Below, in pieces: positions 23,566 to 28,436 of a DNA stretch of 64,000 nt. Position 1 is the stretch's first letter, and each line of letters begins with the position of its first letter. The stretch comes from Artemia franciscana. Its lineage: Eukaryota; Arthropoda; Branchiopoda; Anostraca; Artemiidae. The DNA is taken from positions 27,844,440 through 27,908,439 of the forward strand of contig NC_088866.1 in assembly GCF_032884065.1 (NCBI RefSeq). The letters run 5' to 3'. The translations under genes and the position numbers were made by a program. The notes beneath the pieces were generated by a model. It was not told where the DNA came from, made no database searches, and was given only the letters and a program-made list of their open reading frames with translations.

Positions 23566-26500
23566 AATGTAACATTGTCTTGGATATTCAGACCATCAAG
23601 CCATTCTATTATTACTATGATTTGAGAAATACTTTTTAGCAGAAAACTCTCCAAAGATTTACGATTCACACATTTCCTAACCATTAACTCCAAGCCGTAT
23701 AACTATCCATCAAATCACACTTGAATAGACCTCAAGTATTACGCTTTATGCACCAGAAGGCTCCATTTTTCGTGTTAGAAACAATTAAGTTTCTCAGAAT
23801 TGTCAAGAAAAAACACACTAGGGGAATTTGAATATACTAGATTTAAGCGAACAATCTGGAAAAAAAGTGGTCAAAAGTGAATAACAAGAAGGTTTTTGCA
23901 GACTCTAGTGGATAAAAATTGTTTTGGAAGGGAGGGGGTCATAGAATCAACAGGGTCTATGTTTAATAGAGACCCTTTCGAAAAGCATGATAATAAGAAG
24001 TTGAACTTGTACGTGGATGTTTTTCCTCGTGAAACTGATTTTGCTCATGTGTGTTCATTATTCGTTCCTTGAACTTGTCTTCTACTGATTTTTGTTCTGA
24101 TGCATCTTTTGCATCTCGATTTTTCTCTTCGTGAAACTTATACATTAATTTTTCCCCTAGTGAAACTGATTTTGTTTATAACTTGTTTCGAACTGGTTTT
24201 TGTTCATGGTAATTGTCGTTTGCTGATTTTCGTTCCTGAAACTTGTTGCATCTTCGTTTTTGTCTTCGTGCAACTTGTATATTGATTTTCACCTCATGAA
24301 AAATTAATCATGGAACGTGTTGCTTGCGGAATTTTTGTTCATGGAGCTTGCTGCATACTGATAGAATCTTGTTGCACGAGGATTTTTCACTTCATTGCGC
24401 GCTCATGGTTTTTGTTCGTGAAACCTTTTGAGCGTTGAAAATTTTTGAAACTTTTTGAACGTCCTCATTTTTTCCTCTGAGACTTGGAGCATGTTGATTT
24501 TCCTCTTTGTGGAACTTGTATATTGATGTTTCTCCAAGTGAAACCGATTTTGTTCATGGAACTTCTTTCATCCGGATTTTTTGTTCATGGAATTTGTTGC
24601 GTGCCGATTTTTGTTCTTGAAACTTCTTGCATGTTAATTTTTTCTTTTCGTAAAGCTAGTACGTTGAATTTTCTTCTCATGAAACTAATTTTGTTCATAG
24701 AACTTGTGTGTTGATTTTGTTCATGAAACTTGTTACTTGCCAATTTTTGTTTGTGAAACTTGTTGCATATTGATTTATCTCCTCGTGAAACTTGTACATT
24801 GATTTTTCAGTGCGGTAAACCAATTTTGTCATGGAACTTGTTGCGTGCCTTTTTTATTCACGGAGCTTGTAGCAAGAGGTTTTTTTGTCCGCGAAATTTG
24901 TTGCATATCGATTTTTGCTTTTCGTGAGAGTTTTCCATTTTATTTTCACCTCGTAAAACTGATTTCGCTCAGGAAACTGGTTAAGAACTGATTTTGGTTT
25001 GTGGACCTTATTGTGGGCTGTTTTTTGTTCGTAAAAATTGTTTCATGTTTATTTTTCTTTTCATAAAAAACTTGTACATTGATTTTTCTTCTCGTGACTC
25101 AGATTTTTATGAATGGAAATTCTTGCATGCTGATTGTTGTTCTTGGAACTTGTTGCGTGCTGATGTTTTTTTTTCATGAAACTTGTTACACATTGATTTT
25201 TCTCTTCGTGAAGCTTTTACATTGATTTTATTCCTCGTGAAACTGATTTTGTTCATGGAACTTTTTAGGTTAGGTTAGATTTTGGGTACTGTACAAAGCG
25301 AGTTGGAACCTACAACTAACCCTCACATTGTAGTGTAGGTCAAGTTAGGTTAGATGCCATGACATCTAACCTCAATGAAGCTAATCTACCATGTGTAAGT
25401 TAGGAGTAGGTTTCATACCGCTTTGCACAGTCCCCCAAATATAAGCTAGTGCGAGTCCCATAAAAAAAATCACTTTCACGGGGACAAAATCAACAGAAAA
25501 TTTTCACAAAAGGACAAATCTACATGTAACAAGTTTTACAAAAGAAATCAGCAAGCAATAAGTTCCAAGAAGGAAAATCAGCATGGACCAAGTTCCATGA
25601 GCCAAAATCAGTGTCTCGAGCAGAAAAATCCGTGTGGAAGTTTCAAAAAGAGAAAAATCAGCATTTAAAAAATTTCACAAACAAAAATCAGCATGCAATA
25701 AGTTTCATGAACAAAATCAGTTCCACGAGGTGCAAAAACCAATGTACAATTTTCAGGAAGAGAAAAAATCGATATGCAACAAGTTTAACGAACAAAAAAA
25801 TAAGCAATCAGTATGTTCCACGAATTAAAAATCAGAACGGAACGAGTTCCATTAACAAAATCGGTTTCATTATGTGAAAAATCAATGTTAAAGTTTCACG
25901 AGGAGAAAAAGCAACATGCATCAAATTTCACAAATAAAAATTAGCACGTATTAAGTTCCATCAACCAAAAATTATTATGCAACAAGTATCATGAAAAATC
26001 AGCTTCATGAGGAGAAAAATCAATTTAAAATTTTCATGAAAAGAAAAATCAACATTTAACAAGTTTCAAAAGCGAAAATCAGTGCGCAACAAGTTTAATG
26101 AACAAAATAAACATGCAACAAGTTCCAGGAATAGAGTCAGTTTCATGAGGAGAAAATCAATGCACAAGTTTTACGAAGAGAAAAAATTAGCATGCAACAA
26201 GTTCCACGAAAAACAATCAGCACACAGCAAGTTCCACGAACGAAAATCAACACGCAAAAGGTTCCATGAACAAAATAAGTTTCACAAGGAGAAAAATTAA
26301 ATGTACAATTTTCACGAACAGAGAAAATCGATATGCAACCAGTTTGACGAACGAAAAAATCAGTACGCAGCAAGCTCCACGAATAAAAAATTAACACACA
26401 ACAAACCGATTTTTGATTTTTCACGATGTTAAAAAACAATTTACGAGTTTCACGAAGATAAAAATCCACATACAACAAGCTCCATGAACAAAACCAACAC

Positions 26501-28436
26501 ACAACAAGCTTTGTGAACAAAATTAGTTTCATGAGGAGAAAAATCAACGTACAAGTGTCAAGAAGAGAAAAATTGAACGTGCAACCAGTTTCACGAACAA
26601 AAATCACCATACAACAAGTTCCATGACTAAAATCAGCTTTATGAGGAGAAAATCAATGTATAAGTCCATGAAAGAGAAAAATCAACATGCAATAACTTTC
26701 TCAAACAAAAATCACTACACAACAAGTTCCGTGAACAAAACCAGTACGCAACTAGCTCCGTGAACAAGATCAGTCTTATGAGGAAAAAATCCATTTCTGA
26801 ACACGAAGATAAATAATTGACCCGAATAATTTTACGAAGAGAAATAATTAACACGCTACAATTTTTGCGAGCCAACATGAGTATGCAACAAGTTCCAGGA
26901 ACAAAAATCAGCATGCAACAAGATTCTTGAACAAAATAAATTTTATCAGGAGTAAAAACCAATGTATGAGTGTCAAGAAGAATAAAAGCAACATGCAGCA
27001 AGTTTTTCGAACAAAAATAAGCAGACAACAAGTTTAGTTAACAACAATCAATATGTAACAAGGTCCATGAACAAAATCAGTTACACAAGAAGAGAATTTA
27101 ATGTACAACTTTAACAAAGAGAAAAATCAACATGCAAGAAGTTTCACGAATAAAAAAATCAACACGTGAGGAGTTTCATGGGCAAAATTTGTTGCATGAA
27201 GAATACATCAATGTACAGGTGTCGTGAAGAGAAAAATCAATATGCAAAAAGTTTCACGAATCATTAAGCACGTTCCAGGAACAGAAAAAATAACTACGTA
27301 TTGGGTTCCATCATGAAAATAAGTTTCACAGAGAGAAATCTTTGTACGAGTTTCACGAAGAGAAAAGTCAACGTGCAGCAACATTCACGAACAAAAATCA
27401 GGACGCAGCAAATTCCACAAATAAGAAGAAATCAGCACGCAAAGACTTTCACGAAGAAAATCAATTTGACGAGGCGAAGAAATCAATGTACAAGTTCACT
27501 ATATAAGAAATGAACGTATAAGAAGTTTCACAAACCCAAAAAAATCGACGCACAATATGCTCCGCGAAGAAAAACCAGCACGGAACAAGTTCCATGAACG
27601 AAGTCAGATTCGTGAAAGGAAAAATCCCAAGAACTAGAAAAAACCAGCATACAAAGAGCTCCACGAACAAAATTAGTTTCACGAGGAGAAAAAATCAGTA
27701 CACAAGTTTCACGAGGTGAAAAATCAACGTGCAATAAGTTTTACGAACAAAAATCAGCACACAAAAAGTTTCACGCGCAAAAATAAGCACGCAAAGAGTT
27801 TCATGAATAAAATAAGTTACACAAGGAGATAAAACCAATGTACAAGTTTTACGAAGAGAAAAATTCACATGCAACAAGTTTCACGAACAAAAAATTAGGA
27901 CACAACAAGTTCCATGAGCAATTTTTCACGAGGTGAAATATGAATATACATGTTTCACGAAGAGAAAAATAAAAGTGCAACAAGTTTCACGACCAAAAAT
28001 CATCACACGATCAGTTTCACGAGTAGAAAAACTAATGCATAAGTTTCACAAAGAGAAAAGTCAAGATGCAACAAAATTCATTAACAAAAACCAGCGAACG
28101 ACAAGTTCCAGGAACAAAAAAATCAACACGCGAGAAGTTCCATAAACAAAATTAGTTTTGGCAGAAAAAAATACCAATGTACAAGTTAAACTTCTTATCA
28201 TCATTCTTTTCGAGAGGGTATCCTTTTATTGATTTTTGTTCTTAGATATAGTACATGTTGATTTACATACAGCCCCCACAAATCCATTTCTATCCACCAT
28301 AGTATGCAAAAACCTTCTTATTATTCACTTTAGACCACTTTTTGTTTTACAGATTGCACGCCTAATTCTAGTATGTTTTAATTTTCTTAGTGTGTTTTTT
28401 CTTCATAATTCTGGGTTTTTTTCTAGCGCAAAGAAT
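23566..28436. mobile_element. Foldback-like element: ~4.9-kb imperfect palindrome with minisatellite arms
   Basis: The left arm (about 23777-25260) consists of degenerate ~30-bp units such as 'TTCGTGAAACTTGTTGCAT' + 'GTTGATTTTT'. The right arm (about 25440-28426) has the same units in reverse complement ('AATCAGCATGCAACAAG' + 'TTTCACGAAC'). Outer edges also match in inversion: 'AAAGTGGTCAAAAGTGAATA' (23872) with 'TATTCACTTTAGACCACTTT' (28322), and 'CTTTCGAAAAGCATGATAAT' (23970) with 'ATCATTCTTTTCGAGAGGG' (28200). Arms are unequal, about 1.5 and 3.0 kb. The inner loop is itself inverted. No credible gene is inside: open frames up to 155 codons arise because the unit is close to a multiple of three. 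The design recalls Drosophila FB elements; homology is not shown. Confidence 0.75.
25262..25440. repeat. Palindromic core of the foldback-like element
   Basis: The arms meet in a nested inverted repeat: 'GGGTACTGTACAAAGCG...' near 25283 opposes '...CGCTTTGCACAGTCCCC' near 25420. At the centre (25348-25373) is the 26-bp near-perfect palindrome AGGTTAGATG...CATCTAACCT. There is no minisatellite unit in this part. Confidence 0.75.

What the first reader, a model, noticed from the sequence alone, without database searches (positions are those of the whole stretch)
23777..28426. Giant foldback-like element with minisatellite arms
Seen: two arms of degenerate ~30-bp units in opposite orientation, matching non-repeat outer edges (23795-23990 against 28180-28420) and a palindromic core. 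Known: Drosophila FB elements have long inverted repeats built of short tandem units. Inference: this is an arthropod FB-like element, or a giant palindrome formed by inverted duplication of a minisatellite. The ~30-bp unit and the four-unit alternation (CATGGAACTTG, GTGAAACTTGTTGC, GTGAAACTTGTAC, GTGAAACTGATTTTG) do not correspond to any family I know.
Basis: partly seen in the sequence, partly recalled or inferred. Interest (0 to 1): 0.8.

Follow-up and report, generated by a model that had tools for sequence, protein, structure and literature searches.

The report
Giant foldback transposon with repeat-built arms
The window holds a worn copy of a family of hairpin-like jumping DNA whose two long arms are built from a 30-letter repeat, and complete relatives elsewhere in the genome end like virus-related Maverick transposons although no gene was recognised in them.

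Summary
In detail: two strand-pure arms of a degenerate ~30-bp unit (24000-25255 forward, 25455-28180 reverse) flank a palindromic core, with matching edges. It is not a one-off. Two genome searches with the arm repeat gave 1,009 and 1,001 first-look candidates (40 and 31 scored); among the listed rows, 36 distinct two-armed clusters point inward and none outward; two complex clusters and 29 one-strand rows stand aside. Complete relatives end in AGTAGT...ACTACT (9 of 12 ends exact) with 6-bp target duplications: of 6 resolved elements 3 perfect, 2 with one mismatch, 1 absent; two more were not resolved. An ~11.8-kb copy on C7 joins the same arms to an AGTAAT left end. The ends match the published Maverick/Polinton motif; Galileo (7 bp) and Tetris (8-10 bp) differ, MULE is not excluded by length alone. 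The enzyme link is unproven: 0 of 44 polymerase matches lie near 139 listed end-module places. Verdict: new variant of foldback element, non-autonomous, probably moved in trans by a Polinton-type integrase.

The parts
20751..21040 (+). Outermost remnant of the left A module; homology to the family ends here and another tandem-repeat element (18653-20680) lies next to it
   Evidence: Match to the C215 A region and to the A starts of L014/L015/L016
21041..22545 (.). Sequence interrupting the A module (read as later insertions), including a 0.7-kb repeat 94.7% identical to 10144-10839
   Evidence: Self comparison; 'later' is inference
22546..23376 (+). A module, ~595-bp tandem units
   Evidence: Unit matches; 398 first-look candidates genome-wide, 40 scored; listed rows group into 4 '+-', 0 '-+' and 30 one-strand clusters
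23368..23493 (.). (TA)n tract
   Evidence: TRF
23495..23714 (+). B module (partial A unit joined to the edge)
23715..23999 (+). Left edge module
   Evidence: Inverted match to 28436-28190 and 14-15 matches genome-wide
24000..25255 (+). Left arm of ~30-bp units, one orientation (16:0)
25256..25450 (.). Palindromic core; half of the same core sits between the arms on C215, and core matches lie between arms at C7:41785797, C21:30085746 and C21:29980127
25455..28180 (-). Right arm of the same units, opposite orientation (0:35)
28190..28436 (-). Right edge module, cut at 28436
28442..28775 (+). A sequence in direct, not inverted, orientation: the right half is rearranged

Best explanation
The feature is a truncated, decayed copy of a large family of non-autonomous giant foldback DNA elements. 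Shown: a palindrome of fixed polarity, arms of ~30-bp units pointing inward around a short centre, lying inside longer modular inverted repeats; related complete elements end in AGTAGT...ACTACT and are flanked by short target duplications, best read as 6 bp. Inferred: the elements carry no gene and are inserted in trans by an integrase that reads the AGTAGT end, most likely of the Polinton/Maverick type; the arms grow and shrink by slippage or unequal exchange, and stay symmetrical by inverted duplication or gene conversion between the halves, which also swaps modules between subfamilies.
For: Strand purity and edge match in the window. A symmetrical copy, A-B-edge-arm-core-arm-edge-B-A, on C215 with arms 47:0 and 0:11. 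36 distinct simple two-armed clusters inward, 0 outward; 33 after dropping neighbours within 200 kb. Six resolved two-ended elements: duplications 6/6 (L059 TACTGA, L061 CACATG, C20 AATAAT), 5/6 (L012, L017), 2/6 (L060); a random pair of 6-mers reaches 5/6 with p 0.0077, and 8-26 of 1,680 shifted pairs per element do so (C20 had no shift control). AGTAGT exact at 9 of 12 ends, one mismatch at the other 3. C7:50763524-50775370 unites an AGTAAT left end, outer repeats (78% over 639 bp) and the same arms, forward:reverse 40:0 and 1:81; C12:36787760-36797052 shows outer module, arms, outer module in order. All 8 listed end-module places within 12 kb of a listed arm cluster have the orientation that an element requires. 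Maverick ends (AGT)2//(ACT)2 with 6-bp duplications: passages of PMC8097293; 6 bp for Polinton: passage of PMC10045372.
Against: No true end was found in the window copy. L060 has no duplication. The C7 right end is degenerate and no duplication was read there; the C12 ends were not resolved. Ends were placed by hand, in L059 and C20 by one-base alignment choices. An 8-bp duplication with one mismatch (7/8) fits the same five elements (C20 read) and is not formally excluded; the six-base reading is preferred because three cases are then perfect. Two complex clusters (+-+- and +-+) do not fit the simple pattern, and 29 of 70 cluster rows show one strand only. No enzyme was linked to these ends: 0 of 44 polymerase matches lie within 25 kb of 139 end-module places or 39 arm clusters, with truncated lists, and the flanks of one such locus show no similar ends. 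L012 and two C12 places share flanking DNA, so they are not independent insertions.
Confidence: 0.68

Rival explanations
1. A foldback of the FB/MULE, Tetris or Galileo (P superfamily) kind, with the transposase not found.
For: Same architecture: long inverted repeats with tandem units, copies without coding capacity, chimeric copies and variable arms as described for Galileo (PMC3573991 passages) and Tetris (PMC4079207 passages). One passage gives 4-10 bp duplications for MuDR and its bacterial relatives, and an 8-bp reading with one mismatch fits five elements here.
Against: The best reading is 6 bp, not 8-10 bp (Tetris) or 7 bp (Galileo); extension to 8 bp adds a mismatch in each of the three perfect cases (L059 and L061; C20, read); the end motif is the published Maverick one.
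Confidence: 0.16
2. Satellite DNA: the ~30-bp repeat is an ordinary dispersed satellite whose arrays were inverted by host recombination; no transposition.
For: Arrays are long and numerous (about 1,000 first-look candidates in each); 29 of 70 cluster rows show one strand only (five loci are in both lists, and the tool listed 150 of 257 and 150 of 169 rows).
Against: Random inversions should give both polarities; there are 0 simple outward clusters against 39 inward rows (36 distinct). Listed end-module places near arms have a fixed orientation (8 of 8), and C7 has a recognisable left end.
Confidence: 0.1
3. Assembly artefact: a falsely assembled hairpin.
For: Palindromes are a known source of assembly error (recalled); the contigs were not checked against reads.
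Against: The window arms differ by about 31% and in length; the same pattern stands at 36 clusters on 16 contigs.
Confidence: 0.02

Closest known systems
Maverick/Polinton elements
   Same: End motif AGTAGT...ACTACT and 6-bp target duplications (PMC8097293 passages; PMC10045372 passage); outer inverted repeats of L012, L017 and L059 lie in the size range reported there (46-1,447 bp)
   Different: No polymerase, ATPase, capsid or integrase gene was recognised in the foldback copies (not searched exhaustively); in the arm-bearing copies much of the element is palindrome; no sequence link to a polymerase-bearing locus was found
Maverick-assigned MITEs of Helicoverpa (PMC9033116, passages seen)
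   Same: Non-autonomous, 6-bp duplications
   Different: Those are 50-800 bp with 10-42 bp inverted repeats, 6 and 5 sequences in two genomes; here elements of about 1 kb (C20) to about 11.8 kb (C7), C215 perhaps 20 kb if its outer modules belong to it, arms of kilobases, hundreds of candidate places
Foldback elements: Drosophila FB, Galileo, Tetris
   Same: Long inverted repeats with tandem units, chimeric copies, many copies without coding region
   Different: Duplications of 8-10 bp (Tetris) and 7 bp (Galileo); FB as a MULE with 9 bp is recalled

Membership tests
Foldback element (structural class) | Two long inverted repeats made of short tandem units around a middle domain | tested here: met
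   C215 and C7 copies
Foldback element (structural class) | Dispersed copies bounded by target duplications | tested here: met
   5 of 6 resolved relatives have 5/6 or 6/6; C7 right end and C12 ends not resolved; the window copy has no ends; the arm-bearing copies themselves were not shown to have a duplication
Foldback element (structural class) | No coding capacity | tested here: inconclusive
   First 9 kb of the C7 locus: longest frame 158 aa, most frames read the repeat, judged by eye; not scanned with Pfam
Tetris-type foldback | 8-10 bp target duplication | tested here: not met
   Best reading 6 bp; 8 bp with one mismatch not formally excluded
FB / MULE foldback | Duplication length of the superfamily | tested here: inconclusive
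   6 bp here; FB 9 bp is recalled; a passage gives 4-10 bp for MuDR and IS256 together
FB / MULE foldback | MULE transposase in autonomous copies | not tested
   No search for this family was run
Galileo (P superfamily) | 7-bp target duplication | tested here: not met
   At the aligned ends 7-mers match 3 or 4 of 7 in L012 and L017; 6 bp
Polinton/Maverick | (AGT)2//(ACT)2 end motif | tested here: met
   9 of 12 ends exact, 3 with one mismatch; motif from PMC8097293
Polinton/Maverick | 6-bp target duplication | tested here: met
   3 of 6 perfect, 2 of 6 with one mismatch, 1 of 6 absent
Polinton/Maverick | Ends shared with a polymerase- or integrase-bearing element of the same genome | tested here: inconclusive
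   0 of 44 polymerase matches near 139 listed end-module places; 1 locus read, no match; integrase not searched
Polinton/Maverick | Own polymerase, packaging ATPase, capsid, integrase genes | tested here: inconclusive
   None of 44 polymerase matches lies near a listed end-module place or the 39 arm clusters; C7 frames mostly read the repeat by eye; integrase and capsid families were not searched
IS3EU/GingerRoot | TA..TA ends with 6-bp duplications | tested here: not met
   Ends are AGTAGT...ACTACT; TA..TA from PMC10045372 passage, which allows occasional TG..CA in GingerRoot

The most novel reading that the evidence does not exclude
A foldback class mobilised by Mavericks: whole-element palindromes born when protein-primed replication of a linear Maverick-type molecule snaps back on itself and copies one half in reverse. 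That would explain fixed inward polarity, a terminus of the jumping-back type at both ends, unequal arms and module swapping, and would make Mavericks a source of dispersed satellite arrays.
Probability: 0.22. Interest if true: 0.85.

Novelty: new variant of a known kind. Interest (0 to 1): 0.6.

Why it matters
Foldback elements are mostly placed in the Mutator superfamily, with exceptions such as Galileo in P (PMC4079207 passage). A family with hundreds of candidate places, arms of nearly 6 kb and Polinton-type ends would mean that virus-like Mavericks can support large non-autonomous passengers, and it ties a genome-wide minisatellite to a transposon with a defined polarity. Long near-palindromes at dozens of places are also likely rearrangement sites (inference), and the broken right half in the window fits such an exchange.

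Tried and rejected
A scan for AG...CT ends with a duplication inside the window gave high-scoring pairs, the best of them inside other repeats of the window, and none that frames the foldback. A candidate C215 element at 173-14899 was rejected after alignment. An 8-bp duplication (7/8 in five elements) was set second to 6 bp, not excluded. The polymerase locus on C8 as partner: no similar ends; the best inverted alignment tried there scored 48, below the shuffled maximum of 61. The C12:36787760 element: the two 181-base reads did not resolve its ends. L060 has no duplication and is kept in the count; C7 and C12:36787760 are left out of the six because their ends were not resolved. Papers: passages only of PMC8097293, PMC6431247, PMC4079207, PMC3573991, PMC4642659, PMC10045372, PMC9033116, PMC6004678; all others only as search listings.
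Full report
What is in the window. Two arms of a degenerate ~30-bp unit face each other across a palindromic core. The unit core occurs 16:0 (forward:reverse) in the left arm and 0:35 in the right; the outer edges 23765-24025 and 28436-28164 match in reverse with score 205 against at most 38 in 200 shuffles. The best arm-to-arm alignment abuts the core on both sides (left 24071-25262 against right 26621-25454, 68.7%, 424 bits); the next, in another register, has 389 bits, and the edge-anchored one (23795-24595 against 28413-27622, 67.5%) has 290. 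So the arms are collinear at core and edge, with only a modest preference of register, and differ by expansion or loss in the middle. Both arms share lag peaks at 30, about 108-110 and about 138-140.

On the left, homology with other loci continues through a partial unit (B, 23495-23714) and ~595-bp tandem units (A, from 20751, interrupted by other sequence). On the right the edge stops at 28436 and is followed by A sequence in direct orientation (28442-28775). On contig C215 the same modules form a full palindrome, A-B-edge-arm-core-arm-edge-B-A, with arms 47:0 and 0:11, about half of the core, and stretches inside that match other repeats of the window and look like later insertions. So the window copy has a rearranged right half, and no true end was found in it.

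It is a family. The edge gives 14 and 15 matches, the window's own two included; A gives 70 matches (40 of 398 candidates scored); the core 36 matches at 26 places; the arm repeat 257 and 169 matches with two queries (40 of 1,009 and 31 of 1,001 candidates scored; 150 rows listed each time). Grouping the listed rows within 3 kb gives 39 and 31 clusters: inward 20 and 19, outward 0 and 0, one strand only 18 and 11, and one complex cluster each (+-+- and +-+). Three inward clusters are in both lists, leaving 36 distinct, on 16 contigs, or 33 if neighbours within 200 kb are dropped as possible duplicates. Random inversion of a satellite would be expected to give both polarities (inference). The A rows give 4 inward, 0 outward and 30 one-strand clusters. 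Core matches lie between the arms in the window, at C7:41785797, C21:30085746 and C21:29980127; the other 22 of 26 core places were not seen beside listed arms.

The true ends. Other loci that share the edge have different inner arrays and carry the ends. L012 (C4) and L017 (C21) are complete, 3,518 and 3,291 bp, with inverted repeats that begin AGTAGT. Searches with these ends gave 42 matches (40 of 112 candidates scored) and 45 matches (40 of 610 scored). Eight loci with both ends were looked at. Six were resolved: duplications TACTGA/TACTGA, CACATG/CACATG and AATAAT/AATAAT (perfect), AATTTT/AATGTT and TGTTTG/TGTTTT (one mismatch), GCCTTC/TCCCCT (2 of 6, none). Two were not resolved: C7 (right end degenerate) and C12:36787760. 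Ends were placed by hand. A random pair of 6-mers from these loci matches at 5 or more of 6 positions with p 0.0077; five of six by chance is 1.7e-10 if independent; among pairs shifted by up to 20 bases, 8 to 26 of 1,680 reach 5/6 in the five elements tested. Read as 8 bp, the same five elements match 7 of 8 each (C20 read): the two added positions match in 7 of 10 cases, more than expected, which may be a target preference T(N6)A or may mean that the duplication is 8 bp. I prefer 6 bp because three cases are then perfect. Exact AGTAGT stands at 9 of 12 ends. L012 and two places on C12 share flanking DNA, so they count as one insertion.

Arms and ends in one element. C7:50763524-50775370 has an AGTAAT left end, outer inverted repeats (78% over 639 bp), a left arm of 2.4 kb (40:0) and a right arm of 5.75 kb (81 reverse, 1 forward), with no match to the window's core or edge. 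C12:36787760-36797052 has outer module, forward arm, reverse arm, outer module. With the first arm query, 3 of 39 clusters lie within 12 kb of one of 139 end-module places (expected pairs 0.11; counted as 2 because two of the three look like duplicates of each other, P 0.006); over both queries all 8 such end-module places are oriented as an element requires.

What it works like. Structure: a foldback, as FB, Galileo and Tetris are. Ends: as published for vertebrate Mavericks, (AGT)2//(ACT)2 with 6-bp duplications (PMC8097293, passages), where the repeated end motif is said to serve the jumping-back step of protein-primed replication. IS3EU also makes 6-bp duplications but ends TA..TA (PMC10045372, passages). 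The same paper gives 4-10 bp for MuDR and its bacterial relatives, so length alone does not exclude a MULE. The genome does hold protein-primed polymerase genes, 44 matches (91 of 154 candidates scored), one beside a Pox_A32-type ATPase. But 0 of 44 lie within 25 kb of the listed end-module places or of the 39 arm clusters, and the one locus read shows no such ends. The lists are truncated, so this is weak evidence against, and the enzyme remains an inference.

Novelty. In the held open-access library, the phrases non-autonomous/nonautonomous Maverick or Polinton were found in no paper (3 papers hold only 'Polinton-derived'); 7 papers hold both 'Polinton' and 'foldback', of which passages of two were read, one noting that expansion of inverted repeats has been reported for Polintons (PMC3573991). 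Maverick-assigned MITEs of 50-800 bp with 6-bp duplications are reported in Helicoverpa (PMC9033116, passages). So non-autonomous Maverick-like elements are not new; kilobase foldbacks with minisatellite arms and these ends appear to be, within those searches. Most subscription papers are not held, and Repbase was not searched.

Noticed in passing
window 2930-4401, 12887-14581, 53833-55719; C215 7372-9475: A dispersed element with ~292-bp tandem repeats, present three times in the window and inside the C215 foldback arm.
   Followed up: partly
window 10144-10839 and 21863-22544: A 0.7-kb repeat with palindromic segments, 94.7% identical between copies, probably a young non-autonomous element.
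   Followed up: no
window 8769-10134 and 18653-20680: Another element with ~272-bp tandem repeats that lies next to the left end of the foldback remnant.
   Followed up: no
window 38330-39130 and 49276-49827: An open frame with a BTB match and a related second copy, about 87% identical in DNA over 422 bp; the second copy gave no Pfam match.
   Followed up: no
window 51812-53518 and 58188-59048: Remnants of a LINE (endonuclease match, and a reverse transcriptase match just under the curated cut-off) and of a Helitron (Helitron_like_N).
   Followed up: no
C8:26444546-26445802 with L063 940-1401: Protein-primed DNA polymerase match in an 877-aa open frame, with a Pox_A32-type ATPase nearby: a Maverick- or adintovirus-like element.
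   Followed up: partly
window 21763-21840: Looks by eye like a tRNA-derived (SINE-like) stretch; ARAGORN reports no tRNA gene in the window.
   Followed up: partly
L016 4898-6648 and 6658-8407 (near the start of contig C1): Two tandem copies of a 1.75-kb unit holding arm, edge, B and A, 98.5% identical: recent tandem duplication of foldback modules.
   Followed up: no
window 59599-60669: About 1 kb of T-rich imperfect tandem repeats.
   Followed up: no
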